64,000 nucleotides of DNA, taken from positions 1 to 64,000 of the forward strand of contig NZ_BMGG01000006.1 in assembly GCF_014640075.1 (NCBI RefSeq). The letters run 5' to 3'. Of this stretch, positions 6,123-48,205 are shown one piece after another; position 1 is the first letter of the stretch; each line of letters begins with the position of its first letter. Below the pieces are notes generated by a model that was not told where the DNA came from, did no database searches, and saw nothing but the letters and a program-made list of their open reading frames with translations. The position numbers were made by a program, and so were the translations under genes. Origin of the DNA: Chelatococcus reniformis. Its GTDB lineage: Bacteria > Pseudomonadota > Alphaproteobacteria > Rhizobiales > Beijerinckiaceae.

Positions 6123-6739
6123 CCGGCGGCGGGCTCAAAGTGGAAGAGTTCCCATTGGGACGATGCTTCGGGTGCACCGGCAAGACGCAGAAGGCGAGGC
6201 TCCTCGGAGGGCCCCAAGGTCACATCGAAAGCGTCGAGCGGTTGGGCAAGGCCGAGCCCGAGCGCCTTGATGACAGCCTCCTTTCGCGTCCAGCAACGAT
6301 AAAAGCAGGCCAGCCATTCGGCGCCGCCATAGACGGCTAGCGCGGACCTTTCCGCTGGCGAGAACGAGATCTCCGCAACGCCGGCCTCGATCTGTACGAT
6401 CTGCTCGATGTCGAGGCCGAACGGCACGCTCCGCCCTATGCCCAAAGCGGCAAGGGCGCCGGAATGGCTCAAGTTGAAGTGAGGCCCCGCGTCGCCGGCC
6501 AGCGTCGGCTTGCCGTGCGCGTTATAGGCGAAGCCAAGTGAAGCTGGATCCCGGTCGACCTCCGCGCCGAGAATACGCCGCAACATGCCCCTCGCCGCCG
6601 TGAAACGCAGACGATCCCGCGCACGGACGAAGCGAGCCGCCCTGTCCCGCTCGTCCGGGGACAGCCATCGTTCCAAATGGCACATCTCGTCGAGCGCGCG
6701 GTCCAGGCCGAAGAGCCACACATCGATCTGGCTGGTCAC
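6056..6739 (-). CDS. Sfp-type 4'-phosphopantetheinyl transferase
   Basis: A 227-residue enzyme that moves the phosphopantetheine arm of CoA onto the serine of carrier domains. The diagnostic motifs are present: NLSHSG, FGLDIE with the Mg-binding acids, and WTRKEAVIKALG. I chose the GTG at 6739; an in-frame ATG lies 16 codons upstream, but the extra residues look unlike the family. It probably activates the ACP and PCP domains of the three NRPS/PKS proteins in this window, since no other PPTase is visible. It is convergent with, and overlaps, the hydrolase gene. Confidence 0.88.
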   Translation of the reverse strand: MTSQIDVWLFGLDRALDEMCHLERWLSPDERDRAARFVRARDRLRFTAARGMLRRILGAEVDRDPASLGFAYNAHGKPTLAGDAGPHFNLSHSGALAALGIGRSVPFGLDIEQIVQIEAGVAEISFSPAERSALAVYGGAEWLACFYRCWTRKEAVIKALGLGLAQPLDAFDVTLGPSEEPRLLRLAGAPEASSQWELFHFEPAAGYMGAVAVPAPGHSIVVRRWMP

Positions 6740-6817
6740 CCCACAACGCCTCGCATTGGCCCAACACCCCAGCTTGGCACTGTGCACCAGGCAAGGCGGC
6801 GCTGGCCAGCTGGCCGT

Positions 6818-25207: not shown

Positions 25208-27034
<1,827 letters not shown>

Positions 27035-27513: not shown

Positions 27514-30500
27514 TCATCCGACCCTCGCCATCGGGTGCACGTTGTCACGCCGGAAGCTGCTGAGCGACGGCGGAACCGGAAAGGCCTCGTCGTTCTCGGT
27601 CATCGCGTCGGCCACGCGGGCAAGCTCCGCTACCGTCGGGTGCCGGATCAGGTGCTTGGCCTCGAGGCCGAGGCCCTGGTCCAGCATACGTGCTGCGATC
27701 CTGAAGACGTGGATCGAATCGGCGCCGAGCATGAACAGATTATCTTCGACGCCAACGTCGTCGATCTGCAAGACGTCGCCCCAAATGCCCGCCAGGATTC
27801 GTTCCGTAGCATTGCGGGGCGCGACCGGTGTACGAATGTCACGCGGACGGGCTACCTCCGGCTTGGGCAGGGCCTTGCGATCGAGCTTGCCATTGGGTGT
27901 CAGCGGCAGAGCGTCCAGACGCACCCACTGCGCCGGCAGCATATAGTCCGGAAGGCGCTTGCTCAGGTGGGCCTGCAACTGGGCGATGTCCGCCATCGAT
28001 CCCGGCTGTCCCACGTAGTAGCCGACGAGCCGCGTGGTCGAGCCTTCGCCGACAAGGCCCACCGCGGCCGCCGCGACCCCGGAGCAGTCCCGCGCGACAC
28101 ACTCGATGTCTTCAAGCTCGATGCGGAAGCCGCGCAACTTGATCTGAAGGTCGCGCCGGCCGAGGTGCTGGATGCGCCCGTCGGGCAACCGCCGCGCCAA
28201 ATCACCGGTGTGGTAGAACAGACGCGGGAAGCCGCCGGCGATCGTCTCCTCGCGGAAAGCCGCCGCGGTCAGCTGCGGCTGGCCGAAATAACCATTCGCC
28301 AGCCCCTGGCCACCGATGATGAGCTCGCCTGGCACGCCGATGGGGGCGACCTGGCCGCTGGCGTCGAGCACGTGCAGCTCGGTGTTCAGCACGGGATCAC
28401 CGATGGTGATCGGGCCGTCGTCGAGCACGACGCGTCCGGCGCTCGACCAGATCGTCGTCTCCGTCGGGCCATAGACGTTCCACAGCTCCCCCGCCCCGCT
28501 CCCGAGCTGCTCGGCCAGATCGCGCGGAAGCGGCTCGCCGCCGCAGAGCATGCGCAGCCCCTCGTACGGCCTGAAGCCGGCTTCCAGCAGCATGCGCCAA
28601 AGCGACGGCGTGGCTTGGATATGCGTCGGCCGCAGCCGGTCGATGGAGCCGGCCAGCCCAAAGCCGCTGCGCACCTCCTCCCGATCGGCGATCACGACGG
28701 TCCCGCCGGTGATCAACGGCAGGAACAGCTCGAGGAGGGCAATGTCGAACGTCACCGTGGTCACGGCCAACAACGTGTCGCCCGCCGTGAACCCGGGCCG
28801 CGCGGCAAACGACCACAGCAGGTTGGCGAGAGCGAGGTGGCTGACCTCCACCCCCTTCGGCGCGCCCGTCGAGCCCGACGTGAAGATGACGTAGGCGGAG
28901 TCGGCGGGCCGCACCGCCGGCAGATCGATCGGGCGCAGCTGCATATGGCTGCCGGCAGCCATGGCAAGATCCACGAGCGGCAGGCCCGGCGCGAGCGCAC
29001 CGTGGCGGGCATCGTCGGTGACGATGGCGGCCAGGCCTGCATTGTCGGCGATCAGCCGCAGCCGTGCCTCCGGATGGTCCGGGTCGAGCGGTACGAAGGC
29101 GTGACCGGCCTTCATGATCCCGACGAGGCCGACCATGAGGTCGAGCGAGCGCTTGGCGAGGATCGCGACGCGGCTGCCGGCCTGCGGCACCAGCTCACGC
29201 AGGCGCTTGGCCAGCGTGTCCGATGCCCGATCGAGCTCCCAGTAGGTGAGCGACCGATCGCGCCATTGCACGGCCTTGGCATCGGGCGTGCGCCTGGCTT
29301 GGGCGTGGACGAGCTCGGGCAGCGCGCGCAGATCGAGCGCCTCGCGGACGGTGTCGTTGAGCTCCCTGGTCAACCAGCCGAGCGTGGCGGCGTTGTCGAT
29401 GGCGACATCGCGAACGTGCTGTGCAGCATCCTCGGCCAAGGACCGCAGCGCCTGCTCGAAATGTCCGAGCCAACGCGCAATCGTCGCAGCGTCAAACAGA
29501 TCGGTGTTGTAGTCGCAGTCGAGGCGCAGCCCGTCGGGGCCCTCGATTACGTTGAGGAACAGATCGAAATTGGTGAAGGCCTTGGCATTGGGCGCCACGC
29601 GAGCAGTCGCGTCGCCGAATTTCAGCGCATCGCCAAGCCGCTCCAGGTTGAATTGCACTTGGGTGAGCGGCAGTCGCGCCGGCTGGCGGGCGATGTCGAG
29701 CTTGCGCACCAACGTGCCGAACGTGAAATCCTGGTGCTCGTTGAGGTCCACCATCGCCCGCTGCACGGATTTGAGCAGGTCGCCTGCCGGCGCATTTGGA
29801 TCGATTTGCGTCCTGAGCGGCAGGAAGTTGACGCAGTGACCGACGAGGGGACCGCCGTCCACCAGGCTTTGTCCGGCCGTTGGGATGGCGACCACCTGAT
29901 CGCTCTCGCCGGTCAGGTGCCACATCACGATCTGAAAGGCGCTGGCGAGGGTCGTGAACAGCGTCGCCCCCTGACGAGCTCCCGCCTTCTTGACCGTGCG
30001 ATAGAGCTCAGCGTCGATCTCGGCCCGGTAGGTATCGCCCTTGTAAGTCCTCATCGCGGCGCGGGGCCGGTCCGAGGGCAGCTCGGCGTCCGGCGGCAGG
30101 CGCTCGAACCGCTTCAACCAGTAGGTTTCACTCGCTGTCGGCGCCGTGCCCCCCCGCGCCTGGCCGAGGGCGTAGCGGCGGAACGGCAGCGCCGGCTCCA
30201 GCACCGGCAGCGCCGCCCCGCGCTCCGCCTCGTAGAGGTGCGCCAGCTCCTGGAGGATGATGTTCATCGACCAGCCGTCGCACACGATATGGTGGGCCGT
30301 CAGCACCAGCACGTGGCGCTTCGGCGCCAGCGCCACGAGCGTGGCGCGCACGAGCGGCCCGTCGATCAGATCGAACGGTGTAGCCGCATCCGCCGCCAGG
30401 ATAGCCGCCAGCTCGGCCTCTGCGTCACTCGCCGCGCCGTCGCCTCGCTGCTCGATCGTAACCTTCAGGTCGGGATCGACCACGAACATCTCACCGGTTC

Positions 30501-33500
30501 GCTCGAAGCGACCGCGCAGCGCGTCGTGCCGCGACACCACTTCGTCGAGCGCGCGCTGCAGGGCCGCGGCATCCAATGCCCCGTCGAACCGGATGCTGAC
30601 CGATTCGTTGAACGCGCACGAGATCTCGTCGCCGCCCTGGGCCGCCAGCCAGATCTCGCGCTGCGGCTCGGTCGGAGCGACCTCGTCCGGCAGCGGTCGC
30701 TCGGCCGGCGCGGCCGCAATCGTCGCCGCTGGCGCAAGGGGGGCGTCGGCGAGGATGCCCGCCGCCTGAAGCGCATCGAGGCTCTGCGAAAAGATGCGGG
30801 CGATGGTCTCGATCTCCTCGTCGCCGTGAGCCGTCGTCAGGAAGGCGGGGAAGCCGTCCTGGATATGCAGGCCGAGCGACCGCGCCTGCTGGAAGAACAG
30901 GCCGCCGAGACGATCCTCGTCGTTGAAGTTCAGGTAGAACCAGCTGCTGTAGGTCTCGGCCCGGCTGGTGATGCCGCGCCGCTCCAGGTCCGCGTTGATG
31001 CGGGCGACGAGGCGGCCGGTACGCGCCGCCAGTTGCTGCTGGAGCGCCGGCCCGGCGTCGCGCAGGTGCAGCAGCACGGCACGGGCGGCGGCCAGCGCCA
31101 GCGGGTGGCGCACGAAGGTGCCGGCGAAGAAGGTCGGCGCGACCTCGGGAACGGAATCGTCGCCGTAGCGCCATTGGCCGCCGTCGAGCGCATCCATGAA
31201 GCGCGCCGAGCCGGCCAGCACGCCGATGGGCAGGCCTCCGCCGACGACCTTGCCGTAGGTCGCAAGGTCCGCCTTCAGGCCGAGCACGGCCTGCATGCCG
31301 CCCGGATGGGTGCGGAAGCCCGTCACCACCTCGTCCAGGACGAATGCGGTACCGGACTGCTCCGTGACGGTGCGCAGCTCGCGCAGGAATTCGATGGGCA
31401 GCAGCCCGGGATGGCGGCTCTGCACCGGTTCGGTGATGACCGCCGCGATCGAGTCCGCGTTGGCCTTGATCCACTCAAGGCTGTCGGGCGCGGCGTAGGG
31501 CAGCACGACCATATTGCCGACCGAGCCGCGCGGGATACCCGGCGCCACGGGCAGAGCGCGAGGCGGCGCCGTACGGCCGCCGCCCTTCACCAGCACTTCG
31601 TCGAACTGGCCATGGTAGCCACCGCCGAACAGCACGACGCGGTCACGGCCCGTGACGGTGCGGGCGATGCGCATCGCCGCCATCACGGCCTCGGACCCGG
31701 TGTTGCAGAAGGTGACGCGCTCGTTGCCGGTGAGTTCGCAGAGCAGCTCGGCCACCTCTCCTGCCAGCGGCGATTGTGGGCCGATGGCGAAGCCCTCGCC
31801 CATCTGCGCCGCCACGGCATCGAGGACGAAGTCCGGCGCGTGACCGAAGGCGGTCTGGCCGTAGCCGTTGACCAGATCGATGTACTCGTTGCCGTCCACG
31901 TCCCAGAACCGGGCTCCCTTCGAGCGGGCGCAGACGATCGGAAATACGAGCTCCTTCCACTCGGCGCGAAAGCCGGCGGCGGCGCGCGGATCGGCCAGTG
32001 CGGCGCGATGCGTCTGGGTGTAGGCCTTGGAGCCCGCGGCCCGGCCGCTCAGCCGGCGCGCCAAGTCCTCGATGAAGTCCTGCTGCACGGGGCTCAGGGC
32101 GGCGGCCGCCGCCTTGCCCGGCCGATAGACCTGGAAGCGCGAGCCGGCGTCGGCCGTTGTCAGAGATGCCTCGGCCAGCTGCGCCTCGGTGGAGGACGGC
32201 TCGGCGGAGGTCGGCACGGCTGCGATCGCCGCGAGAGGTCCTCCGGCCGAGGACGGCTGCACCGCCGCGACCGCCGCGACCGCCGCGACCGCCGGTCGAG
32301 CCACCGTGGCGCTGGCAGAGCCGGCGGCCCCGTCGAGGCCCGCGCCCGCTCCTTGCAGAACGGCGATCTGCTGGCTGATGACCTGCTGCATCGCGCCGAG
32401 CTGCTGGCGAAACAGATCGGCGATTCCTCCTGCTGGCTCCGCCGCCGTCGCAAGGACCACGGGCGCCGGCGGTAGGGCGACGGGCTGAGCCTGCGCCGGC
32501 GCGGCGGCCGGAGCTTGCGTGGGCGTTGCTTGCCGAGCTGGTGCGGGCGCCACGACCGCTGCGGCGCGCGGCGGCAGGTGCGGGGCGAGGTAGGCGCCAA
32601 GGGCGGCGATGGACGGCAGATCGCCAAGCAGCTGCCGGAACGTCAGCGGCACCTTGAACGTCTGCTGTACGCGTGTCGCGACCTGGGCGAGAAACAGGGA
32701 ATCGAAGCCGAGCTCCAGAAACGACGCATGGTGATCGTCGTCGGCGATCGGCTCGCCTGAGAGATCCTCGAGAATGGCGACGATCTCGGCCGCAAGACCG
32801 GTGTCTGCGATGGTGATAGGCGCAGGCGACGGCTCGGCCTGATCGGACATGGAGGGCGTTCCTTCTGTGCTGTTCGTATTGATCTCTGCAGACGGCTGCT
32901 GCACCGCAGCGGGCGGCTCGATCCAATGCCGCTGGCGCTGAAACCGGTAGGTGGGCAGGGAGACGCGGCGACGGCCGGTGCCGGTCAGCGCGTTCCAATC
33001 GGGCTCGCTGCCGTGGGCCCAGAGAGCGCCTACTGCGTCGCGCACCGCAATGACGTCGTCGCCGTCCGCCGGCAACGTCGTGAGGATGGCGGCATACTGC
33101 TCCTTACGGAGCGATTGCCGGGCCAGCGTGGCCAGCGTCTGGCCCGGACCGACCTCGAGCAGAATGGGCCTGTCGAGCTCCCCCAGCGTCGCCATCGCCC
33201 GGCCGAAGACCACCGCCGCCCGGCACTGGCGGCCCCAATAGTCGGGGGCGCCGGCCTCGGCATCGGTGATCCAGGTCCCGCTCACACTGGACACGTAGGG
33301 AATGGCAGGGCGCTCCGCCGGCATGGCGGCGAAGCGCTGGCGAAGCGGCTCGACCACCGGCTCCATCATGGCGGAGTGGAACGCGTGCGTCGTTCGTAGC
33401 TGCCGGCAGGCGATCCCGCGGCCGGCCAGCGACGCCTCCAAGGCCCCGATCGCCTCGCTGCTGCCGGCCGCGACGCTGTGCTTCGGCCCGTTGGCGGCGG

Positions 33501-35595
33501 CAATGTCCGCGCCCGGCGGCAGCAGCGCCGCGAGCTCATCGGCCGCCAGTCTGACCGACAGCATGACGCCGCGGGGCTGCGCCTGCATCAGGCGGCCGCG
33601 ATCGGCGATCGCTCGCGCGGCGTCCTCATAGCTGAACACGCCCGCGATCGTGGCCGCCACGAGCTCGCCGATGCTGTGGCCGACCATGGCGTCCGGCTTG
33701 AGGCCCCAGCTCATCAGCAGGCGGGCGGTAGCGTGCTCGATCAGGAACAACGCCGGCTGGGTGTTCGCCGTGGCGTCGAGCGGATCGTCGTCGCCCACCG
33801 CGGCATCCGAGAACATCAGTTCACGTACGTCCGCCCCGGTCACCTCGGCCACGCAGGCCGCCCCCCGGTCGACGAAGTGGCGAAACAGCGCCTCGGACTC
33901 GTAAAGCCCCCGTCCCATGTTCCTTGCCTGCGCGCCCTGACCGGGAAACATGAAGACCAGCGGGCGTCCCGGCTCGGCCGTGGCAGTGACGGCCTGCTCA
34001 CGCAGCCGCGCCGCCAGCTCGCCAGCCGAACGGGCGGCCACCGCCGAGCGGTGGGCGAAGGCGCGACGGCCAACCTGAAGGGTGTGAGCGACGTCGCCCA
34101 ACCGCACCTCGCCAGGGCGCTCCATATGATCGGCCAGCGCTGCCCGAGCGTCGATCAGCGCCTGGTCGCTCTTGCCGGAGAGCGGGAAGACGAACGCCAT
34201 TCCCTCCGGGTCGGGCGTCCGCGCCGGACCGGCCGGCGCCTCCTCCATGACCACGTGCACGTTGGTGCCACCGACGCCGAGGGCACTGGTGCCGGTCCGT
34301 CGTGGCGCCGCCCCGGCCGGCCATGCCTGGAGCTCGCGATTGACGTAGAAGGGACTTGCCGCCAGATCGATGCCCGGATTTGGCCGGTCGAAGTGGAGCA
34401 GCGGGGGGATCTCGCCGTGCCGCAGCACAAGCGCCGCCTTGATCAGGCCGGTCACGCCGGCCGCGGCATCGAGATGCCCGACGTTGGCCTTGACCGAACC
34501 GAGGGCGCAGAAGCCGCTCTTGTCCGTGCTGGCGCGGAAGGCCTTGCCGAGCCCGGCGAACTCGATCGGATCGCCCAGCGGCGTGGCGGTGCCGTGAGCC
34601 TCGACGAAGCCGATCGTGTCGGCGGTGATGCCCGCCTGCTGATGCGCCAGGGCGACGACGCGCGCCTGCCAATCGACGCTCGGCGAGGTGAAGCCGACCT
34701 TGCCCGAACCGTCGTTGTTGACGGCACAGCCGCGAATGACCGCATAGACCTGGTCGCCGTCGGCGATGGCATCCTCGAGCCGTCGCAGCACGACGAGCGC
34801 AGCACCGCTGCCGAACACCGTGCCGCCGGCAGCCGCATCGAAGGGCCGGCAGCGCCCATCGGGCGACACCATGCCGCCCTCCTGGTGCAGGTAGCCGCGC
34901 TGCTGCGGAAACGAGATCGAGACGCCCCCGGCGATCGCCATGTCGCACTGGTAGGTCTGCAGGCTTTGCGCTGCCTGGGCCACGGCGAGCAGCGACGTCG
35001 AGCAAGCGCTCGCGACGGTCATGGCGGGCCCGTGCAGATCGAGCTTGTAGGCGACGCGCGTCGCGATGAAATCGTGCCCGGCGCCGACCAGCAACGGATA
35101 TTGGCCAACCTGAAATTCGTTGGTGAAATCCTCGATGACGCGGCGGTCGGCGCAGACGTTGCGAAGAAAGTAGGTGTTGAGCGAGCAGCCGGCGAACACG
35201 CCGATGGCGCCTGCGAAGGTAGCGGGGTCGTGGCCTGCGTCCTCGAGCCCTTGCCACGCGCACTCCAGGAAGACGCGGTGCTGCGGGTCGGTGAGCGCAG
35301 CCTCGCGAGCGTGCATGCCGAAGAACGACGCGTCGAACGTGTCCACGTTCGTGAGGATCGGGCGGGCGGCGACGTAGCTGGCGTCGGCACGCACTTGCGA
35401 AGCGAAGCTGTCGTCGATGTCGGCGGGATCGAAGCGGGAGATGGACTCCACGCCCTGGCGCAGGTTCTGCCAGAAGGCCTCCACCGACCCCGCCCCGGGA
35501 AAGCGCCCGGCAACCCCGACGATGGCGACGGCGCCCAGGTCGAGAAGCTCGCGCGCGGCGCAGTCGTTCGGCTCCGTATCAGCCACAGTCGTCAT
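27514..35595 (-). CDS. Hybrid PKS - aminotransferase - NRPS: KS-AT-ACP-AMT-C-A-PCP
   Basis: A 2693-residue megasynthase. KS at ~20-450 with Cys198 (SACSTS), His334 and His374. AT at ~545-850 with GHSIGE (Ser641) and HAFHS, the malonyl-CoA signature. ACP at ~930-1000 (GFDSL, Ser966). An Ala/Pro-rich linker, 1005-1150. A class III aminotransferase at ~1200-1610 with DEVVTGF and PLP-Lys1449 (TYGKVVGGG). C at ~1640-2070 with an intact HHIVCDG. A at ~2090-2580 with TSGSTGAPKG and Lys2570. PCP with Ser2627 (GADSI). No KR or DH is present, so the beta-ketone made by KS-AT would be transaminated. My manual reading of the A-domain code is DILQLGVIWK, close to the glycine code. The start overlaps the A-PCP stop (ATGA). 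Order resembles the AMT modules of mycosubtilin/iturin and microcystin synthetases. Confidence 0.93.
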   Translation of the reverse strand: MTTVADTEPNDCAARELLDLGAVAIVGVAGRFPGAGSVEAFWQNLRQGVESISRFDPADIDDSFASQVRADASYVAARPILTNVDTFDASFFGMHAREAALTDPQHRVFLECAWQGLEDAGHDPATFAGAIGVFAGCSLNTYFLRNVCADRRVIEDFTNEFQVGQYPLLVGAGHDFIATRVAYKLDLHGPAMTVASACSTSLLAVAQAAQSLQTYQCDMAIAGGVSISFPQQRGYLHQEGGMVSPDGRCRPFDAAAGGTVFGSGAALVVLRRLEDAIADGDQVYAVIRGCAVNNDGSGKVGFTSPSVDWQARVVALAHQQAGITADTIGFVEAHGTATPLGDPIEFAGLGKAFRASTDKSGFCALGSVKANVGHLDAAAGVTGLIKAALVLRHGEIPPLLHFDRPNPGIDLAASPFYVNRELQAWPAGAAPRRTGTSALGVGGTNVHVVMEEAPAGPARTPDPEGMAFVFPLSGKSDQALIDARAALADHMERPGEVRLGDVAHTLQVGRRAFAHRSAVAARSAGELAARLREQAVTATAEPGRPLVFMFPGQGAQARNMGRGLYESEALFRHFVDRGAACVAEVTGADVRELMFSDAAVGDDDPLDATANTQPALFLIEHATARLLMSWGLKPDAMVGHSIGELVAATIAGVFSYEDAARAIADRGRLMQAQPRGVMLSVRLAADELAALLPPGADIAAANGPKHSVAAGSSEAIGALEASLAGRGIACRQLRTTHAFHSAMMEPVVEPLRQRFAAMPAERPAIPYVSSVSGTWITDAEAGAPDYWGRQCRAAVVFGRAMATLGELDRPILLEVGPGQTLATLARQSLRKEQYAAILTTLPADGDDVIAVRDAVGALWAHGSEPDWNALTGTGRRRVSLPTYRFQRQRHWIEPPAAVQQPSAEINTNSTEGTPSMSDQAEPSPAPITIADTGLAAEIVAILEDLSGEPIADDDHHASFLELGFDSLFLAQVATRVQQTFKVPLTFRQLLGDLPSIAALGAYLAPHLPPRAAAVVAPAPARQATPTQAPAAAPAQAQPVALPPAPVVLATAAEPAGGIADLFRQQLGAMQQVISQQIAVLQGAGAGLDGAAGSASATVARPAVAAVAAVAAVQPSSAGGPLAAIAAVPTSAEPSSTEAQLAEASLTTADAGSRFQVYRPGKAAAAALSPVQQDFIEDLARRLSGRAAGSKAYTQTHRAALADPRAAAGFRAEWKELVFPIVCARSKGARFWDVDGNEYIDLVNGYGQTAFGHAPDFVLDAVAAQMGEGFAIGPQSPLAGEVAELLCELTGNERVTFCNTGSEAVMAAMRIARTVTGRDRVVLFGGGYHGQFDEVLVKGGGRTAPPRALPVAPGIPRGSVGNMVVLPYAAPDSLEWIKANADSIAAVITEPVQSRHPGLLPIEFLRELRTVTEQSGTAFVLDEVVTGFRTHPGGMQAVLGLKADLATYGKVVGGGLPIGVLAGSARFMDALDGGQWRYGDDSVPEVAPTFFAGTFVRHPLALAAARAVLLHLRDAGPALQQQLAARTGRLVARINADLERRGITSRAETYSSWFYLNFNDEDRLGGLFFQQARSLGLHIQDGFPAFLTTAHGDEEIETIARIFSQSLDALQAAGILADAPLAPAATIAAAPAERPLPDEVAPTEPQREIWLAAQGGDEISCAFNESVSIRFDGALDAAALQRALDEVVSRHDALRGRFERTGEMFVVDPDLKVTIEQRGDGAASDAEAELAAILAADAATPFDLIDGPLVRATLVALAPKRHVLVLTAHHIVCDGWSMNIILQELAHLYEAERGAALPVLEPALPFRRYALGQARGGTAPTASETYWLKRFERLPPDAELPSDRPRAAMRTYKGDTYRAEIDAELYRTVKKAGARQGATLFTTLASAFQIVMWHLTGESDQVVAIPTAGQSLVDGGPLVGHCVNFLPLRTQIDPNAPAGDLLKSVQRAMVDLNEHQDFTFGTLVRKLDIARQPARLPLTQVQFNLERLGDALKFGDATARVAPNAKAFTNFDLFLNVIEGPDGLRLDCDYNTDLFDAATIARWLGHFEQALRSLAEDAAQHVRDVAIDNAATLGWLTRELNDTVREALDLRALPELVHAQARRTPDAKAVQWRDRSLTYWELDRASDTLAKRLRELVPQAGSRVAILAKRSLDLMVGLVGIMKAGHAFVPLDPDHPEARLRLIADNAGLAAIVTDDARHGALAPGLPLVDLAMAAGSHMQLRPIDLPAVRPADSAYVIFTSGSTGAPKGVEVSHLALANLLWSFAARPGFTAGDTLLAVTTVTFDIALLELFLPLITGGTVVIADREEVRSGFGLAGSIDRLRPTHIQATPSLWRMLLEAGFRPYEGLRMLCGGEPLPRDLAEQLGSGAGELWNVYGPTETTIWSSAGRVVLDDGPITIGDPVLNTELHVLDASGQVAPIGVPGELIIGGQGLANGYFGQPQLTAAAFREETIAGGFPRLFYHTGDLARRLPDGRIQHLGRRDLQIKLRGFRIELEDIECVARDCSGVAAAAVGLVGEGSTTRLVGYYVGQPGSMADIAQLQAHLSKRLPDYMLPAQWVRLDALPLTPNGKLDRKALPKPEVARPRDIRTPVAPRNATERILAGIWGDVLQIDDVGVEDNLFMLGADSIHVFRIAARMLDQGLGLEAKHLIRHPTVAELARVADAMTENDEAFPVPPSLSSFRRDNVHPMARVG
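32261..32294. repeat. Tandem 9-bp repeat in the PKS linker
   Basis: ACCGCCGCG is repeated about 3.8 times without a spacer. On the coding strand it encodes an Ala-Ala-Val repeat in the flexible linker between the ACP and the aminotransferase. Copy number may vary between strains without breaking frame. Confidence 0.8.
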
Positions 35596-37463
35596 AGTGT
35601 CCGCTCCAGGCTGCGCCGGCGAAAGCGTTGCAGCGCCGCTTGGCGGGCGGCGCCACGCACCCCCGGATCGTCGACAAGCCGGTCGCGCGCCGGCTCGTCA
35701 CCGCCGAGGCGCGCCGCCAAGCTTGCTATGGTGGGGTTCTCGAACAGCGCGACCAGCGGCAGGTTCGGCAGGCCGAGCGCCCGCAGACGCGCATGCACGT
35801 TCATCAAGAGCAGCGACGTGCCGCCCAGATCGAAGAAGTTCACGTCGCGCGGCACTTGCGCCCGCCCGAGCACGGCGGCCCACACGCCGCCGACGGTGAC
35901 CTCCAGCTCTGCCGTCGGGACGGCGCCGGGCGCGACGCCGACAGGTGCGTCGAGGGCCGCGGGCGCCGCCGCGGCGAGCTTCGCGCGGTCGATCTTGCCG
36001 TTCGTGGTCAGCGGAAACCCATCCACCACGCTGAAGGCCGAAGGTACCATGTAGGCCGGCAGCGCCCGCCGCAGCCGCTCTCCCAAGCCGGCGGCAGCGA
36101 TATCGTCGCGGGAGCCCCCCGCGGTGGCGTTGAGGAAGGCGACAAGGCGGCGGGCCCCCGCCGGCCCCTCGCACACCACGACGGCGGCATCCGCTACGCC
36201 GGGCTCGGCGCGCAGCGCCGTCTCGATCTCCTCGATCTCGACACGCTTGCCATCGAGCTTGATCTGGCGATCCATCCGGCCGAGGAACTCGTAGGCTCCG
36301 TCCGGCCGGCGGCGAGCCAGGTCCCCGGTGAGGTAGAGCCGCTTGCCGATGGCCGGCACATGGACGAACTTGCTGGCGGTGAGTTCGGGCGCATTCAGGT
36401 AGCCGAGCGCGAGCCCGTCGCCGCCGACGCACAGCTGTCCCGGCTGGTCGGCGGCAACGGGGCGTAGATCGTCGCCCAGGAGGTGGACGGTTCCGTGGGC
36501 GATCGGCCGTCCGATGGGGATCGGGCCGTCGTCATCCGTCCCGATCGCGTGGCAGCACGAGAAGGTGGTGTTTTCGGTGGGCCCATAGCCGTTGACGAAG
36601 CGACAGTGCGGCAGCGCCTGCCGCGCGCGCTGCATGTGGGACGGCGAAAGCACGTCGCCGCCGGCGAGGATCTGGCGCAGCGGGCGCAGCCCGTCGAGCC
36701 GTTGGTCGACCAGCAGGTGAAAGAGCCCTGCGGTAAACCACGCCGTCGTGGCGCCGTAGGCGGCGATCGCCGTAACGATGTCGTCAACGGACGGCCGCGT
36801 CTCGTGCACGATTCCGAGCTTTGCGCCGTTCAGCAGCGCCCCCCAGATTTCGAACGTGCTGGCGTCGAAGGCGAGCGGCGCCAGATGAAGAAAGGTCTCG
36901 TCCGCTTCGAAGCGCGCGTAGGTTTGGCCGCGAACCAGCCGAACGATGGCGCGATGCGGCACGACCACGCCCTTCGGCCGACCGGTCGATCCCGACGTGT
37001 ACATGACATAGGCGGCGTCCCCCGGCCCTCCGACGTCCGGCTGCGTATCGCCCGGCAGCGACGCGGCCTCGGCCAGCGCCTGGTCGAGGTCTATGAAGCG
37101 GCTCCCTTGCGCCGGCGCCAGAGCCGCGCGTCCGACCACGAGCGCCGGCCTCGCGTCGTCCAGCATCGCCGCGAGGCGCGCGTGGGGATAGACGGGATCG
37201 AGGGGGACGAAGGCGGCGCCGAGCTTGAGCACCGCGAGCATGGCCACGACGGCGCCGGCCGACCGCTCCGCCAGCAGAGCCACCCGGTCGCCCTGCCCGA
37301 CGCCCTTGATTGCCAGGTACCGGGCCAGCCTGTTCGATAGCTGTTCGATGTCCGCGTAGCTATACTGGCGTGAACACTCGATGACCGCCGTCGCAAATGG
37401 CGTTTCCGAAGCTTGCCGAGCGAAGGCGCCGTGGACGGTCGCCTCGCGATCGAAATGATGCAT
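35592..37463 (-). CDS. NRPS loading protein: adenylation - carrier (A-PCP)
   Basis: A 623-residue protein. The adenylation domain spans ~10-500, with YTSGSTGRPKG near 155, YGPTE near 293, TGDLARRRPDG near 379 and the catalytic Lys490 (NGK). The carrier spans ~515-585 with LGGTSL and Ser550. Reading the pocket by hand gives DAFWLGGTFK, which differs at one position from the classic valine code DAFWIGGTFK. There is no condensation domain, so it should act as a starter, handing an aminoacyl group to the KS of the overlapping downstream gene. The Arg-rich C-terminal tail (QRFRRRSLERTL) may be a docking element. It is the first gene of the assembly-line operon; the promoter should be in 37464-37729, shared with a divergent glycosidase gene. 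Confidence 0.92.
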   Translation of the reverse strand: MHHFDREATVHGAFARQASETPFATAVIECSRQYSYADIEQLSNRLARYLAIKGVGQGDRVALLAERSAGAVVAMLAVLKLGAAFVPLDPVYPHARLAAMLDDARPALVVGRAALAPAQGSRFIDLDQALAEAASLPGDTQPDVGGPGDAAYVMYTSGSTGRPKGVVVPHRAIVRLVRGQTYARFEADETFLHLAPLAFDASTFEIWGALLNGAKLGIVHETRPSVDDIVTAIAAYGATTAWFTAGLFHLLVDQRLDGLRPLRQILAGGDVLSPSHMQRARQALPHCRFVNGYGPTENTTFSCCHAIGTDDDGPIPIGRPIAHGTVHLLGDDLRPVAADQPGQLCVGGDGLALGYLNAPELTASKFVHVPAIGKRLYLTGDLARRRPDGAYEFLGRMDRQIKLDGKRVEIEEIETALRAEPGVADAAVVVCEGPAGARRLVAFLNATAGGSRDDIAAAGLGERLRRALPAYMVPSAFSVVDGFPLTTNGKIDRAKLAAAAPAALDAPVGVAPGAVPTAELEVTVGGVWAAVLGRAQVPRDVNFFDLGGTSLLLMNVHARLRALGLPNLPLVALFENPTIASLAARLGGDEPARDRLVDDPGVRGAARQAALQRFRRRSLERTL

Positions 37464-37729
37464 GTCTGAAATCTTCTGGCAGTCGTGGAACTCGGGAACG
37501 TCGTCGGACCGGACTCGCTCCGTTCTGGTTGCAGCCAGTGTGACTTCAATCGTGACCTGGGCGCTCGATGCAAACGGCGGATCGCCGACCCTCTTTCGGC
37601 GTAGGCCGATCCGCCTTAAGAGCCGCGCGATTTCCTCGTTTGGAGACGGCTCGAAATGACGTCGCTGCGGGCATCCTACGGTGCATGAACCGGGCCACGG
37701 CCCGGCGGTCCGCTTTGCCGGGAGACACG

Positions 37730-38743
37730 ATGCTCCGTTACTTGCGCCGCGCGCTCTTCGTCGCCTGTACGACGGCTGCGCCCCTGCTCGCGCCTTGCGC
37801 CCACGCGGGCGATCTGCTCTGGGGCCTCAACGGCCACCCGCTCGTATCCTATCCGGGCGTGACGTTCGACCAGCAGATCGAGCTGGTCAAGCAGCTCGGC
37901 GCCAAGTCCTACCGCGTGGACGTCGTGCGGCTCGACGCGATGGAAGGCTTGGCGAGGCTGGTGGACACCGCGGCCGCGCGCGGCGTTGCAGTGCTGCCGG
38001 TGCTCCTTCCACCGCTTGATCTGAAAAGCGAGTCGGCTGGCGACCTGAAGCGCAAGAGTGCCCAGTTTGCCGAGGCCTTCGTACGGCGGTTTCCGCAGAT
38101 CGAGGTTTGGGAGCTCGGCAACGAGCTGGAGAACTATGCTATTCTTCAGCCCTGCGAAACAATGGACGATGGCAGGAAGTATCCATGCGAATGGGGCCCC
38201 GCGGGCGGCGTCACCGCACTTGAGTATTATGGCCCCCGCTACGCCAAGGTCGCCGCGGTTCTCGGCGGGCTGGCGGAAGGCGTACGGGCCGCAAGCGCCA
38301 CGGCCAAGCGTGCGATAGGATCAGCGGGATGGGGCCACCTCGGCATCTTCGAGCGCCTGAAGCAGGACGGTATACCTTGGGAAATCACGGTCTGGCACTG
38401 GTACGACGGCGACCCGGAGCCGTCGTTCAAGGCCCTGGCCCAATATGGCAAGCCCATCTGGGTCACCGAATTCAACCATTCGTACGGAAGCCAGCGTGAC
38501 GGCGAAGACGGGCAGGCCCGCGGTCTCGCCGACAAGATGGCGTTGCTGCGCAAGCTGGCGCCCACTTACGGCATTCAGGCGGCGCACGTCTATGAATTGC
38601 TCGACGAGACCTATTGGGCGCCGAGCTTCGAGGCCTTCATGGGTCTGATCCGTCTCGAGCGAACGCCGGATGGCAAAGGCTGGATGCTCGGAAGCCCCAA
38701 GCCGGCCTTCTACACCTATCGCGACGCCGCCACGCAGAAGTAA
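37730..38743 (+). CDS. Secreted glycoside hydrolase, clan GH-A (GH39-like)
   Basis: A 337-residue protein. The start ATG follows GGGAG, and residues 1-26 form a signal peptide ending in AHA, so the enzyme is exported. WELGNELENYA near residue 136 has the Asn-Glu pair of the acid/base in clan A enzymes. WVTEFNHSYG near residue 245 supplies the likely nucleophile Glu. GAKSYRVDVV fits the first barrel strands. In polysaccharide clusters such enzymes trim, release or clear polymer in the periplasm. The ExoY-type gene follows in the same direction. The exact glycosidic bond is unknown. Confidence 0.75.
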   Translation: MLRYLRRALFVACTTAAPLLAPCAHAGDLLWGLNGHPLVSYPGVTFDQQIELVKQLGAKSYRVDVVRLDAMEGLARLVDTAAARGVAVLPVLLPPLDLKSESAGDLKRKSAQFAEAFVRRFPQIEVWELGNELENYAILQPCETMDDGRKYPCEWGPAGGVTALEYYGPRYAKVAAVLGGLAEGVRAASATAKRAIGSAGWGHLGIFERLKQDGIPWEITVWHWYDGDPEPSFKALAQYGKPIWVTEFNHSYGSQRDGEDGQARGLADKMALLRKLAPTYGIQAAHVYELLDETYWAPSFEAFMGLIRLERTPDGKGWMLGSPKPAFYTYRDAATQK

Positions 38744-38847: not shown

Positions 38848-38859
38848 GGTCACGTGACC
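38848..38859. promoter_or_regulatory. Perfect 12-bp palindrome before the ExoY-like gene
   Basis: GGTCACGTGACC is an exact palindrome located 18 bp upstream of the chosen start codon. It could be an operator, but the protein that would bind is unknown. Confidence 0.35.
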
Positions 38860-38877
38860 GTCTCAGGCGGAAAATCC

Positions 38878-39606
38878 ATGGGCACGCTCGGAGGAGACCA
38901 GCTTCAAGTGTTGGACGATCAGCCATTCCCCGTCATGTCGGCGCCGCCTTTCGCCGGGCCGAGAACCCGCGACTCATCGGCCGCAAGGCATGCGCGCGGC
39001 GGTCTCGCCAAGCGCGCCTTCGACATTTGCGTCGCCGCAACGGCGATCATACTGTTGCTGCCGCTCATGGCGATTGTCGCGATCTTGATCATGGGGTCGA
39101 TGGGAGCCCCCATCTTCTTCGGCCACCAACGCATCGGCCTCGGCGGCAAAGTATTTCGCTGCTACAAATTCCGAACCATGGTGCGTGACGGTGATCGCGT
39201 TCTCCAGGAGCACCTGCGCACCAATCCCGAGGCGGCTGCCGAGTGGCGGGATACCCGCAAGCTTGCCGACGATCCGCGCATCACCTTCGTCGGTCGGGTG
39301 CTTCGCAGCTCCAGCCTGGACGAGCTGCCGCAACTCGTGAATGTCCTGCGCGGCGACATGAGCTGCGTCGGGCCACGCCCTATCGTCCACGACGAGATTA
39401 CTCTTTACGGCCCGAGCGCCGACGACTATCTGCGCACGCGCCCCGGCATAACCGGTGCCTGGCAGGTCAGTGGACGCAGCAGCCTGTCCTATGCGGAGCG
39501 CGTCGCCATCGATTCGGACTATGTGCGCAACTGGTCGTTCTGGACCGACTTGACGATCATCGTGCGGACGATCCCGGCGCTCGTCCGCACCCACCAGACG
39601 TCCTGA
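38878..39606 (+). CDS. Undecaprenyl-phosphate sugar phosphotransferase (ExoY-like)
   Basis: A 242-residue bacterial sugar transferase. One membrane helix (AATAIILLLPLMAIVAILIM) is followed by the conserved cytoplasmic domain: YKFRTMVRDGD, LRSSSLDELPQLVNVLRGDM, GPRPIV and RPGITGAWQVSGRSS. It puts the first sugar phosphate on undecaprenyl phosphate and so starts each repeat unit of an exopolysaccharide. I chose ATG 38878 behind AGGCGG; GTG 38854 is in frame but lies inside the palindrome region. The Wzy-like polymerase and ExoF-like genes further on complete a Wzx/Wzy-type export route. Confidence 0.9.
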   Translation: MGTLGGDQLQVLDDQPFPVMSAPPFAGPRTRDSSAARHARGGLAKRAFDICVAATAIILLLPLMAIVAILIMGSMGAPIFFGHQRIGLGGKVFRCYKFRTMVRDGDRVLQEHLRTNPEAAAEWRDTRKLADDPRITFVGRVLRSSSLDELPQLVNVLRGDMSCVGPRPIVHDEITLYGPSADDYLRTRPGITGAWQVSGRSSLSYAERVAIDSDYVRNWSFWTDLTIIVRTIPALVRTHQTS

Positions 39607-42839: not shown

Positions 42840-44039
42840 TTATCTCCCATCCGTCGAGCCGTAGGGCCCAGGTAACATCGCCTCCCCGCCGATCGCCGAC
42901 GGGGCCGCCGCTGTCCCGATCAGGTCGGTGCGGCCATCGATCCGCGCCATCAGCTCGAGGTAGGTCTCGGCCACGCGCCTCCAGGTGAACTGCCGCGAGC
43001 GTTGATAGCCGGCCCGGCGCAGCCTCGACCGCAGAGCGGGATTGTGGTGCAGCGATGCCACGGCGCGCACCCAGCCGGGCTCGTCGTCCGGATCGGCATA
43101 GAGCGCGGCGTCGCCACAGACTTCGGGGATCGCCGGCGCGGTCGACGCGACCACGGCGCAACCGCGTGCCATCGCTTCGGCCGCTGGCAGGCCAAAGCCC
43201 TCGATTCGGGAGGGAAACAGAAAGCACACGGCGTTCGACATCGCCGCCGCGAGCTCGTCGTCGTCAACGCGCCCGATGAAATGCACGTTGTCACTCGGCG
43301 TGGGCCCAGCGCTCCCGACGTCACCCGCCACCAGGACATCGAGCCCGAGTTGCTTCAGCGCCGGCGCGATGCGCCAGATGAGCGACATGTTCTTGTATGG
43401 CTGATCGCGCCCGATGCAGAGGACGAAAGGCTTCCGCTCGATGTAGCTGCGCGCGGAGCGCGCCGGCCGCCAGCGATCCGCATGATCACTGCCGTTGTAC
43501 GCGACGACGATCTTGTCGCGCGGCACGATACCGAGCGTATCGAGGTGGTCGCGCGACAGCCCCGACACCGTCGTCACGAGTCGCACACGCCGCCCCAGCA
43601 CCGGCAGAATGAGACGGTGAGCCAGCCTGAACATCCTTCCGTAGCTTTGAGGCATGACGTAGGTGTGGGCATCGTGAATGCAGAGCACCTGCTGCCTGAC
43701 GCTCATCGGGGCCAGATTGCAGAAGCTGAGCAGCCCTCCCTCGACGTGCCTGGGCAACTGCAATTGCGACCAGACCTGCGGCAGGCGCGGCGTGCGGAAC
43801 TCGGGCACCACCTTCACCGCCATCCGCCGGAGCGGCAGGTCGAGCGGCTCCCGCGGCGCGATGAGCGTCAGGTCCAGATCGCGCGCCAGTGGATGGCGCT
43901 CGGCGACCAGGGCGTCGAGCGCCGACGTCACCTCCCTGGCGTAACGTGCCACCCCTGTCGGCTTGAGGTTCACGAAGTCGCCATTGACGGTCCAAACGCG
44001 GCGCTCAGATGCCCTCGACCATTGGGCGTCGGCATTCAC
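42840..44039 (-). CDS. Family 4 glycosyltransferase
   Basis: A 399-residue GT-B enzyme. The N-terminal WTVNGDFVNLKPTGVARYARE, the donor-domain start FVLCIGRDQPYKN and the EGFGLPAAEAMARG motif with the two nucleotide-contacting Glu residues define GT4. I chose GTG 44039 because GGAGG lies nine bases upstream; this also gives the same length as its divergent paralogue at 44272-45474. The two proteins share many segments (LLSFCNLAPM/LLSLCNTGPI, QVLCIHDAHT/QILCIHDVNT) and arose by duplication and inversion. Donor and acceptor are unknown. Confidence 0.87.
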   Translation of the reverse strand: MNADAQWSRASERRVWTVNGDFVNLKPTGVARYAREVTSALDALVAERHPLARDLDLTLIAPREPLDLPLRRMAVKVVPEFRTPRLPQVWSQLQLPRHVEGGLLSFCNLAPMSVRQQVLCIHDAHTYVMPQSYGRMFRLAHRLILPVLGRRVRLVTTVSGLSRDHLDTLGIVPRDKIVVAYNGSDHADRWRPARSARSYIERKPFVLCIGRDQPYKNMSLIWRIAPALKQLGLDVLVAGDVGSAGPTPSDNVHFIGRVDDDELAAAMSNAVCFLFPSRIEGFGLPAAEAMARGCAVVASTAPAIPEVCGDAALYADPDDEPGWVRAVASLHHNPALRSRLRRAGYQRSRQFTWRRVAETYLELMARIDGRTDLIGTAAAPSAIGGEAMLPGPYGSTDGR

Positions 44040-44271
44040 CTTCGAAAACCTCCATGCTCGCATCCGCCTTGATCGAGGCACTGGCGAACGGCGTCAACAC
44101 GGCAATCGGAGGGTGGCTTTACGCTATGGATCGAGGTCATCGTGCAGAAGGGGTATGCTCTCTCGACTTCCTACGCCCAATGCTAGCTGGCGCAGAACTC
44201 GGCTGTGAAAGACATTCGCCGAGCGCGACTTCCACGTGCCCGCGCGCCTGTGAACAAGGCCAATTCAAAGA

Positions 44272-45474
44272 ATGACCCGATGCTGGACGATCAACGGACG
44301 CTTCCTGACGCAACCGCTCACTGGCGTTCAGCGCTATGCTCACGAGATCGTCGCCAGCCTGGATCGTCTGATCCGTGATGGACATCCCCTCGCGCAGGGG
44401 CTCGATGTCGAGCTGGTCATGCCCAAGCACGGCAACCAAGTCTCGCTGGAGCAGATCGCAGTGCGTCGCGCCGGTAATTTCGGCGGCCACCTGTGGGAAC
44501 AGCTGGTGCTCCCGGGCCAGGCGCGAGAAGGGCTGCTCAGCCTGTGCAATACCGGCCCCATCCTCGCCTCCAAGCAGATCCTGTGCATCCACGACGTCAA
44601 CACGCGCGCCTTCCCGCAGAGTTACTCGCGCCAGTTTCGCCTGCTGCACAGATTGCTCATCCCGCTCATCGCCAAGCGGGCAGCGCGCGTCACCACGGTC
44701 TCAGCGTTCTCGGCAGCCGAGATTGTCAGGGAGGGAATCTGCCCGCCGGGCAGCGTCACCGTCATTCCCAACGGGCATGAGCATGCGTTGGCGTGGTCAC
44801 CGAAACACTCCGACGAAACACGTCGGGTCGCAGGCCCCAATACGATCGTCGTGATCGGCAGCCCGGCGCCGCACAAGAACGTCGGCATGCTGCTGGCCCT
44901 GGCACCGCGGTTGGCCGCAGCGGGCTTCCGCCTGGCCCTCGTCGGCGGGCTGGACTCCAGGGTGTTTCAGGCGGGCGCCGGGCCGAGCGACGATGTCAAT
45001 GTCGCCGCTCTCGGCCGACTGTCCGACAACGAGCTCGCGGCCTTGCTGTCGAGCTCACTGTGCCTCGCCTTTCCATCGTTCGTGGAGGGGTTCGGCCTAC
45101 CACCGCTGGAGGCGATGGTGATCGGCTGTCCCGTCGTCGTCTCCGACCGGGCCAGCCTGCCGGAGCTCTGTGCCGATGCGGCGATTTACGCACCGCCGGA
45201 CCAGCCGGACGCCTGGATCGAAGCGTTCAAGCGGCTGCGCGCCGATCCCACGCTCCGCTTCAGAATGGCGGCTACCGGCCGGGCTCGCGCCCAGGAGTTC
45301 AGATGGTCGGTATCGGCGGAGGCCTACCTCAAGGAGATGGCGGTCGCAGACGGCTTGATCACGGCGGCGGAGGCAGCCAGCATGACCGGCTCGAAATCCG
45401 CATCGCTGGGCGGCGGAGCCGAATTCAGGGCGACGCGCCCAGAGGCGCGCGTCGCTGCCGCGCGCGGTCTCTAG
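44272..45474 (+). CDS. Family 4 glycosyltransferase, paralogue of the divergent neighbour
   Basis: A 400-residue GT4 enzyme with WTINGRFLTQPLTGVQRYA at the N-terminus, VVIGSPAPHKN at the donor domain and EGFGLPPLEAMVIG carrying the catalytic-site Glu pair. It is encoded head-to-head with its paralogue across a ~230-bp promoter region. The C-terminal ~35 residues (from TGSKSAS on) look unconserved. The stop codon TAG at 45472-45474 is part of the dispersed repeat that begins at 45471, and a 9-bp hairpin (GCGACGCGC with its complement) lies inside the last codons at 45430-45455. Confidence 0.87.
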   Translation: MTRCWTINGRFLTQPLTGVQRYAHEIVASLDRLIRDGHPLAQGLDVELVMPKHGNQVSLEQIAVRRAGNFGGHLWEQLVLPGQAREGLLSLCNTGPILASKQILCIHDVNTRAFPQSYSRQFRLLHRLLIPLIAKRAARVTTVSAFSAAEIVREGICPPGSVTVIPNGHEHALAWSPKHSDETRRVAGPNTIVVIGSPAPHKNVGMLLALAPRLAAAGFRLALVGGLDSRVFQAGAGPSDDVNVAALGRLSDNELAALLSSSLCLAFPSFVEGFGLPPLEAMVIGCPVVVSDRASLPELCADAAIYAPPDQPDAWIEAFKRLRADPTLRFRMAATGRARAQEFRWSVSAEAYLKEMAVADGLITAAEAASMTGSKSASLGGGAEFRATRPEARVAAARGL

Positions 45475-47069: not shown

Positions 47070-47324
47070 TGCATGCCTCCGACCGGGCATCGCGATGCCC
47101 CATGCGCTCATCATCCGACGATACGCGCCTGCCCCCAATCCATTCTTTCGGAACAGGGTTGCGCCATGTGGTGCCTCGCCCCCGCGCGATCCGTACCAAT
47201 TTTGAAGTAGCACCGGCTTGGCCTAAGACCGCGGGCATCGGATTTGGTACTGCAGGCTTGCAGTCATCTCACCTACTGTTCCAGCATTGATCGCCGCAGT
47301 TGCGTGGGGAGCAGCAGGGAAAGT

Positions 47325-48194: not shown

Positions 48195-48205
48195 AGAACC
48201 TCGCG

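What the first reader, a model, noticed from the sequence alone, without database searches (positions are those of the whole stretch)
27514..37463. Compact PKS-aminotransferase-NRPS assembly line with an apparently undescribed product
Two overlapping genes encode A-PCP and KS-AT-ACP-AMT-C-A-PCP. By hand the A-domain codes read DAFWLGGTFK (valine-like) and DILQLGVIWK (glycine-like), and the AT has the malonyl HAFHS motif. With no KR or DH, the AMT should aminate the beta-ketone formed from a valyl starter, giving a 3,4-diamino acid (3,4-diamino-5-methylhexanoyl) before glycine is added. A vicinal diamine from an AMT acting next to an amino-acid starter differs from the fatty-acyl starters of the mycosubtilin and iturin systems.
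Basis: partly seen in the sequence, partly recalled or inferred. Interest (0 to 1): 0.85.

Follow-up and report, generated by a model that had tools for sequence, protein, structure and literature searches.

The report
Diamine-peptide assembly line in slime locus
Three enzymes encoded among exopolysaccharide genes form an assembly line that is predicted to join valine, a two-carbon unit and glycine into a small molecule with two neighbouring amino groups, likely to be attached to the cell's sugar coat, which would be a new way for bacteria to decorate their surface.

Summary
35592-37463(-) is A-PCP and 27514-35595(-) is KS-AT-ACP-AMT-C-A-PCP; both A-domain codes and the AT motif are confirmed. 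In 11 relatives it lies directly downstream as the last enzyme of the line. Its A domain is absent, its C domain has HQ for HH, and its thioesterase has a Cys nucleophile, the constant feature of an otherwise variable release unit. The window is an exopolysaccharide (EPS) locus. A sugar-phosphate transferase lies within about 20 kb of the line in 14 of 32 genomes, 0.8 expected, and other EPS genes flank it in Beijerinckia and Methylobacterium, but not in Methylocella or Reyranella. Conflicting trees show that the line was exchanged while the EPS locus stayed. Most likely it makes 3,4-diamino-5-methylhexanoyl-glycine, delivered by the Cys-thioesterase to the polysaccharide; the chemistry, and above all the attachment, are inferred. 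Amino-acid starter plus AMT architectures were tabulated in 2013 (PMC3870968), so this is a new variant of a known kind; the EPS link is the more novel part, unreported in my searches.

The parts
35592..37463 (-). Loading protein A-PCP (623 aa); A about 35994-37424, PCP about 35706-35888; A code DAFWLGGTF (valine-type)
27514..35595 (-). KS-AT-ACP-AMT-C-A-PCP (2693 aa); KS ~34231-35529, AT ~33043-33957, ACP ~32587-32787, AMT ~30991-31947, C ~29398-30681, A ~27886-29307 (code DILQLGVIW, glycine-type), PCP ~27586-27804
2413..4953 (+). Third, displaced protein of the line: C-PCP-TE (846 aa); C ~2473-3768 with HQIAFDG in place of HHxxxDG, PCP ~3889-4068, TE ~4168-4893 with Cys nucleophile (GLCVAG)
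4953..6122 (+). Conserved alpha/beta hydrolase with N-terminal hydrophobic helix (likely membrane-anchored), next to the third protein in relatives; fold like feruloyl esterase, PAF-acetylhydrolase, PETase
6056..6787 (-). 4'-phosphopantetheinyl transferase, also beside the line in 11 of 16 relative regions
798..2306 (+). Wzx-type polysaccharide flippase
37568..38743 (+). EPS-locus protein (weak glycosyl-hydrolase-core hit below cut-off), syntenic upstream of A-PCP in Ancylobacter, Camelimonas, Methylobacterium Leaf104
38854..39606 (+). Bacterial sugar (undecaprenyl-phosphate sugar-phosphate) transferase; the only PF02397 match in this genome
40047..41462 (+). Hydrophobic Wzy-like protein (no Pfam match; assignment inferred from sequence and position)
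42840..44081 (-). Glycosyltransferase (GT4)
44272..45474 (+). Glycosyltransferase (GT4)
45849..47213 (-). Glycosyltransferase
47244..48194 (+). Glycosyltransferase family 2
48029..49519 (+). Wza-type polysaccharide export protein
49607..50581 (-). LuxR-type regulator; homologues also near the line in Ancylobacter and Camelimonas lactis

Best explanation
Three proteins - A-PCP, KS-AT-ACP-AMT-C-A-PCP and a C-PCP-TE encoded 22.6 kb away - lie in an exopolysaccharide locus and, as the matching contiguous genes of relatives indicate, likely form one assembly line that is predicted to make 3,4-diamino-5-methylhexanoyl-glycine and would likely hand it to the polysaccharide. Predicted steps: the first A domain loads valine on PCP1; KS extends the valyl thioester with malonyl carried by the ACP to a 4-amino-3-oxo chain; with no KR present, the AMT replaces the beta-ketone by an amine, giving a vicinal diamine; the second C domain joins it to glycine. 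The third protein has no A domain and its C domain has Gln for the catalytic His, so here it likely acts as a release cassette: the chain passes to its PCP and its Cys-thioesterase, which would transfer it to an amine or hydroxyl of a sugar of the EPS. The membrane-anchored alpha/beta hydrolase next door may trim or transfer the group outside the cytoplasm. Shown by sequence: domains, codes, third protein, conservation, EPS setting, exchange of the line. Inferred: substrates, amination, release mode, attachment.
For: Domains; codes and active sites; the best solved relative of the AMT is the mycosubtilin MycA AMT (6kfm, E 9e-115). The three proteins are contiguous and colinear in 11 of 49 relative loci printed. 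Release unit: TE Cys in 11 of 11 of these and in 119 of 119 alignable of 120 listed homologues, the window's own protein included; in genome G615 a Cys-TE is fused straight behind the second module's last PCP and no third protein is seen, so release directly after module 2 occurs. EPS link: BacTr (PF02397) within about 20 kb of the AMT in 14 of 32 genomes, window included, 0.84 expected, and in 5 of 9 hand-made lineage groups, 0.27 expected; GTs/Wzy/Wzz upstream in two Beijerinckia, and the window's EPS genes around the line in Methylobacterium Leaf104. In this genome the only BacTr lies 7 kb from this line, and the NRPS C domains outside the window are on other contigs. In the family, GT42840 is in 6 of 298 genomes and the AMT in 24; 4 have both (hypergeometric p 4e-4; without the window's genome 3 of 5, p 4e-3; neither corrected for kinship). 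The EPS tree pairs the window with Camelimonas (support 100), the assembly-line tree with Ancylobacter/Azorhizobium (support 100): the line is an exchangeable part of the EPS locus.
Against: Six Methylocella-type genomes with two-sided flanks show no EPS genes like my queries beside the line (in G507 it sits among COX3/SURF1 housekeeping genes and next to a RuBisCO-like gene), nor does Reyranella, so an adjacent EPS locus is not required. EPS loci of the same type lack the line in G059 and G682. BacTr lies farther than 20 kb or on another contig in 18 of 32 genomes, although at least four of these (G013, G041, G109, G602) have the line near a contig end or on a short contig. No enzyme of sugar acylation was identified and no chemistry is tested. 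The third C domain keeps HHxxxDG in other lines (G038, G053, G562, G706, G507, G533), so a release-only role is not a general rule. In this window the third gene is split from the others, so its partnership here rests on relatives. In Camelimonas the TE lacks the expected His/Asp residues.
Confidence: 0.4

Rival explanations
1. The line makes the same vicinal-diamine dipeptide but releases it as a free small molecule (metal chelator, signal or antibiotic); EPS genes are neighbours because both are surface or biofilm functions in a variable region.
For: The line is found without nearby EPS genes in Methylocella-type genomes and Reyranella; an Opp-type peptide/nickel ABC importer with two alpha/beta hydrolases lies beside it in the window; vicinal diamines bind metals (general chemistry).
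Against: EPS neighbours recur in several lineages far above chance; the importer and its hydrolases are not among the gene families shared by three or more regions, and relatives show only weak generic ABC matches. No exporter stands out among those shared families, though families F17 and F20 were not annotated.
Confidence: 0.35
2. The Cys-thioesterase cyclises the chain, so that the product is a small lactam, as SulM and ObiF Cys-thioesterases form four-membered rings.
For: Cys nucleophile in 119 of 119 alignable homologues; PMC11298585 (passages) notes Cys nucleophiles and small products for SulM and ObiF; free amines are present in the predicted chain.
Against: That paper places the SulM/ObiF catalytic Asp after strand 7, whereas the window TE keeps an Asp at what looks like the ordinary strand-6 site (LADLWLP), as in AB3403; the C-terminal residue is predicted glycine, which has no beta nucleophile for a four-membered ring. 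An acidic residue also sits near the second site, so the triad is unresolved.
Confidence: 0.12
3. The third module still adds a residue, with its PCP loaded in trans by another A domain, giving a tripeptide.
For: In G038 the line itself ends in C-A-PCP-TE with an intact HHIVCDG motif and an A code DILQLGMIW; paralogues with a full A domain exist in Methylocella silvestris; several other lines keep HHxxxDG.
Against: The window and 65 of 70 listed A-less homologues have Gln or Glu for the catalytic His; in G615 the TE follows the second module directly.
Confidence: 0.1

Closest known systems
Mycosubtilin synthetase subunit MycA (cis AMT between PKS and NRPS)
   Same: GSAM-type aminotransferase in cis after KS-AT-ACP and before C; MycA AMT is the best solved relative (6kfm)
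   Different: Starter is an aminoacyl unit from an A-PCP protein (valine-type code), not a fatty acid; the predicted product is a 3,4-diamino acid
Microcystin/nodularin McyE and NdaF
   Same: PKS module, AMT, then an NRPS module; beta-amination followed by an amino acid (PMC2885083 passages)
   Different: No C-methyltransferase domain here (its place in McyE is recalled); short amino-acid starter; Gly-type instead of Glu-activating A domain
A-CP-KS-AT-CP-PLP1 proteins in PMC3870968 Table 2 (Pedobacter C6XWU5, Thiorhodococcus G2E5C9; Salinisphaera F7QBN5 with a leading C)
   Same: Amino-acid module directly before KS-AT-CP-AMT; Pedobacter cluster predicted Nrp-Mal-Gly-Pk
   Different: Other bacterial groups; separate A-PCP protein and C-PCP-TE here; no EPS context is reported in the section read
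SulM and ObiF1 Cys-thioesterases
   Same: Cys nucleophile in an NRPS TE and a small product (PMC11298585 passages)
   Different: Asp position appears to be the ordinary one (by alignment only); no four-membered ring predicted

Membership tests
Hybrid PKS-NRPS with cis GSAM-type aminotransferase (MycA/McyE kind) | Aminotran_3 domain in cis between the PKS carrier and the C domain | tested here: met
   MycA AMT 6kfm E 9e-115 over query residues 1-430
Hybrid PKS-NRPS with cis GSAM-type aminotransferase (MycA/McyE kind) | Beta-ketone left for the AMT (no KR/DH in the module) | tested here: met
   No KR, DH or ER domain among Pfam hits
Hybrid PKS-NRPS with cis GSAM-type aminotransferase (MycA/McyE kind) | AMT active-site motif (TYGK; its role as PLP lysine is recalled) intact | tested here: met
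   window and 15 relatives aligned (one has SYGK)
Hybrid PKS-NRPS with cis GSAM-type aminotransferase (MycA/McyE kind) | Amination of the ACP-bound beta-ketothioester | not testable with these tools
   needs reconstitution
Mycosubtilin/iturin family | Fatty-acyl starter (acyl ligase loading) | tested here: not met
   Loading is by an A-PCP with a valine-type code
SulM/ObiF-type Cys-thioesterase | Cys nucleophile | tested here: met
   GLCVAG; Cys in 119 of 119 alignable homologues
SulM/ObiF-type Cys-thioesterase | Catalytic Asp on the loop after strand 7 | tested here: inconclusive
   By alignment an Asp is kept at the strand-6 site and an acidic residue near the second site; no TE structure made
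Wzx/Wzy-type exopolysaccharide locus | Sugar-phosphate transferase, flippase, glycosyltransferases, export protein | tested here: met
   PF02397, PF13440/PF01943, PF00534/PF00535, PF02563 in the window; the Wzy-like ORF has no Pfam hit
Polysaccharide acylation system | The assembled acyl group is transferred to a sugar | not testable with these tools
   needs EPS chemistry

The most novel reading that the evidence does not exclude
A modular PKS-NRPS assembly line serves as an exchangeable decoration cassette of exopolysaccharide: it builds a vicinal-diamine aminoacyl-glycine and its Cys-thioesterase installs it on the polysaccharide, giving a cationic, metal-binding sugar coat. Lineages swap the cassette, with altered starter A-domain codes, while keeping the polysaccharide locus.
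Probability: 0.33. Interest if true: 0.8.

Novelty: new variant of a known kind. Interest (0 to 1): 0.57.

Why it matters
If right, it joins two fields that are kept apart, assembly-line biosynthesis and surface polysaccharides, and gives a directly testable system in culturable soil bacteria (Ancylobacter, Azorhizobium, Beijerinckia). It would also supply an enzymatic route to 3,4-diamino acids. The release unit of these lines comes in forms from C-A-PCP-TE through C-PCP-TE and C-TE to a bare fused TE, always seen with Cys where it could be read, which is a natural series for studying how such lines end.

Tried and rejected
Reading the adjacent LLM/alpha-beta hydrolase/Opp transporter genes (18.6-27.0 kb) as part of the pathway: they are not among families shared by relatives, apart from one LLM homologue 15 kb from the Reyranella line; rejected as core.

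The full-A homologue of Methylocella silvestris BL2 (P0103) lies about 390 kb from the line in G507, and its counterpart in G041 is on another contig, so these are paralogues. Within lines, A is full in G038, a remnant-sized insert is present in others, and A is absent in the window; the order of events was not tested.

Filing the TE under SulM/ObiF: Cys met, Asp position not shown; not filed.

EPS link as universal: rejected, because Methylocella-type genomes and Reyranella lack EPS neighbours.

EPS link as a mere artefact of kinship: weakened, because gene orders differ (BacTr adjoins A-PCP in G038, lies about 18 kb off in the Hyphomonadaceae genome and 12-14 kb off in G053, G562 and G706) and trees conflict; kinship was not formally modelled. 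The null assumes BacTr genes fall at random, and the nine lineage groups were chosen by hand. The EPS tree has missing genes for several taxa (Camelimonas fluminis and two Ancylobacter were fetched only in part).

Literature: ten searches (two searches returned no paper; the others were seen as listings) gave no report of this cluster, of its product or of an NRPS-made EPS substituent. The library holds only open-licence papers. PMC11964084 (passages) reports more type I PKS clusters in cultured methanotrophic Beijerinckiaceae but names no such product in the passages seen. MIBiG and antiSMASH were not on hand.

Notebook slip: entry 2 says 15 of 32 genomes with BacTr; the right count is 14. 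Gene calls in relatives came from a simple codon-position script, so small genes may be missed, and EPS genes unlike the queries would not be seen. Relative loci L056-L086 were fetched but their architectures were not printed. The flanks of 5 of the 12 genomes of genus g40 were not fetched, and G041 is cut by a contig end. In one search the TE motif was sought by a crude pattern: Cys was read in 10 of 12 lines; G502 and G533 were not resolved.
Full report
WHAT IS THERE. The two ORFs of the finding are real and intact. Pfam finds AMP-binding and PP-binding in the 623-aa protein and KS, AT, ACP, Aminotran_3, Condensation, AMP-binding and PP-binding in the 2693-aa protein, with no reductive or methyltransferase domain. 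Alignment of A domains gives DAFWLGGTF and DILQLGVIW at the nine specificity positions; the valine and glycine meanings of these codes are recalled, not looked up. KS (ACSTS, EAHGT, NVGH), AT (GHSIG, HAFHS), AMT (LDEVVTG, TYGK) and all four carrier serines, including that of the third protein, are intact. The AMT's best match among solved structures is the mycosubtilin AMT.

THE MISSED THIRD PROTEIN. A scan of the whole genome for condensation domains showed another one in the window, and Pfam shows it to be C-PCP-TE at 2413-4953 on the + strand. In the genome collection, the AMT stretch found 80 loci. I printed architectures for 49 (L007-L055). In 11 of them (four Ancylobacter, Azorhizobium, a Hyphomonadaceae MAG, two Camelimonas, two Reyranella, Beijerinckia mobilis) the order is A-PCP, KS-AT-ACP-AMT-C-A-PCP, C-(PCP)-TE, head to tail on one strand. 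One more (L014) is cut by its contig; in the Hyphomonadaceae MAG the second protein is broken into two ORFs; the Reyranella third proteins show no PCP. The C-PCP-TE is thus most likely the third protein of this line, and in the window it lies 22.6 kb away and inverted, together with the adjoining hydrolase and phosphopantetheinyl transferase genes. Misassembly cannot be excluded without reads.

THE RELEASE UNIT. A protein search with the third protein gave 702 homologues at E <= 1e-60 (7991 candidates scored), of which 120 were listed, the window's own included. By insert length between C and PCP, 3 have a full A domain, 46 an insert of the size of the A C-terminal part, 1 is intermediate and 70 have none. 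Both His of HHxxxDG are kept in 3 of 3, 6 of 46, 0 of 1 and 5 of 70; the rest are HQ (86), HE (19) or HR (1). The TE nucleophile is Cys in 119 of 119 with that column. These are homologues, not all members of such lines: the full-A protein of Methylocella silvestris (P0103) lies about 390 kb from the line in G507. Reading the lines themselves: G038 ends in C-A-PCP-TE with HHIVCDG (A code DILQLGMIW); G507 and G533 have C-PCP-TE with a longer C-PCP gap and HH; G589, G628, G653 and Methylobacterium Leaf104 have HQ; G053, G562 and G706 have C-TE without PCP and with HH; G502 has C-TE with HHAIADG; G615 has no third protein found and a TE fused behind the second module. Cys was read in 10 of these 12; two were not resolved by the pattern used. 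Among the 11 close relatives, 7 have HQ, the two Camelimonas HHLAGDC and the two Reyranella HA/HS, and all 11 have Cys. So the Cys-TE is the constant part; the condensation part varies, and in the window it looks inactive.

CODES IN RELATIVES. Of the 11 loci, the starter code is DAFWLGGTF in 8, DLKNVGSDI in both Camelimonas and DPLIFGAII in the Hyphomonadaceae MAG; the second code is DILQLG(V/M)IW in 9 and differs in the two Reyranella. A valine-type starter and a glycine-type second residue are therefore the common but not the only settings.

SETTING. The window is a Wzx-type exopolysaccharide locus: flippase, sugar-phosphate transferase, at least four glycosyltransferases, export protein and sugar-nucleotide genes. 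Homologues of its EPS genes lie beside the line in four Ancylobacter, Azorhizobium, two Camelimonas and Methylobacterium Leaf104. Other EPS-type genes lie beside it in two Beijerinckia (two GT4, Wzy_C, and Wzz in one), G038 (Bac_transf next to A-PCP, Wzy_C), the Hyphomonadaceae MAG (UDP-glucose dehydrogenase, Wzy_C, Wzz, Bac_transf), four genomes of genus g12 (a Wzy_C protein; in three of them also Bac_transf and sugar epimerases within the fetched stretch) and G502 (Bac_transf). They are not seen in six Methylocella-type genomes with fetched two-sided flanks or in Reyranella. Bac_transf genes lie within about 20 kb of the AMT in 14 of 32 genomes, window included; expected 0.84 if placed at random. 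In this genome the single Bac_transf gene lies 7 kb from the line, and the four condensation domains outside the window are on contigs C1 and C7. In the family, the AMT at E <= 1e-130 is in 24 of 298 genomes, GT42840 in 6 and the 37568 protein in 7; four genomes have AMT and GT42840 (p 4e-4; without the window's genome 3 of 5, p 4e-3; kinship ignored). EPS loci of this type without the line exist (G059, G682), so the line is optional to the EPS locus. In the class, 6 of 385 genomes have an AMT at E <= 1e-90, the window's included.

CASSETTE EXCHANGE. Its EPS proteins are mostly a little closer to Camelimonas (BacTr and GT47244 level), but its assembly-line proteins are far closer to Ancylobacter: A-PCP 61-65% against 39-40%, C-PCP-TE 64-71% against 35-36%. 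Maximum-likelihood trees agree: the EPS set splits window plus Camelimonas from the rest with support 100; the assembly-line set splits window plus Ancylobacter plus Azorhizobium from Camelimonas and the rest with support 100 (some EPS genes missing for some taxa). The line has been exchanged inside a conserved EPS locus, in the window's lineage or in Camelimonas.

OTHER CORE GENES. An alpha/beta hydrolase with an N-terminal hydrophobic helix is shared by 13 of 17 regions compared, window included, next to the last synthetase gene; AlphaFold gives mean pLDDT 81 (lower in the N-terminal helix) and Foldseek's best matches are feruloyl esterases, PAF-acetylhydrolase and PETase. A Ser, a His and several Asp are invariant in 11 aligned members. 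A phosphopantetheinyl transferase adjoins the line in 11 of 16 relative regions.

MECHANISM. Established knowledge of these families gives: Val on PCP1, Claisen extension with malonyl, transamination of the beta-ketone, condensation with Gly. The predicted free product is C9H19N3O3. The release mode is inferred. A Cys-TE forms an acyl thioester; with a C domain lacking its catalytic His and no A domain, transfer of the finished chain rather than elongation is the simplest reading here. Because the line travels with EPS loci, I commit to an EPS sugar as the likely acceptor, at moderate confidence; a freely released compound is the main rival.

WHAT IS KNOWN. PMC3870968 (section 7 read; passages) lists amino-acid modules directly before KS-AT-CP-aminotransferase in Pedobacter and Thiorhodococcus, and in Salinisphaera; so the architecture is not unprecedented. 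McyE/NdaF (PMC2885083 passages) and MycA share the AMT position. SulM/ObiF share the Cys nucleophile (PMC11298585 passages). Ten paper searches found neither this cluster nor an NRPS-made EPS decoration (listed in Tried and rejected). Verdict: observation confirmed, interpretation partly supported, new variant of a known kind with a potentially new role.

Noticed in passing
window 18626-27030 (+): Luciferase-like monooxygenase, two alpha/beta hydrolases and an Opp-type ABC importer (SBP_bac_5, OppB/C/D/F) in a row, lying between the displaced C-PCP-TE block and the line; not among neighbours shared by relatives, though a similar LLM lies 15 kb from the Reyranella line.
   Followed up: partly
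window 9578-14685 (-): dTDP-sugar isomerase, GHMP kinase, epimerase, nucleotidyltransferase-HAD fusion and SIS protein: looks like a GDP-heptose pathway for the EPS.
   Followed up: no
L101-L105 (Camelimonas): Same line but starter A code DLKNVGSDI, third C domain HHLAGDC and a TE that keeps Cys but lacks the expected His and Asp: perhaps another starter and another release mode.
   Followed up: partly
L176-L177 (G615): Variant line: first protein 1338 aa with a partial extra A domain, second protein ending in a fused Cys-TE, no third protein found nearby.
   Followed up: partly
   Followed up: partly
window 60901-63852 (-): 983-aa open frame with no Pfam match, overlapping a 416-aa frame on the other strand.
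   Followed up: no
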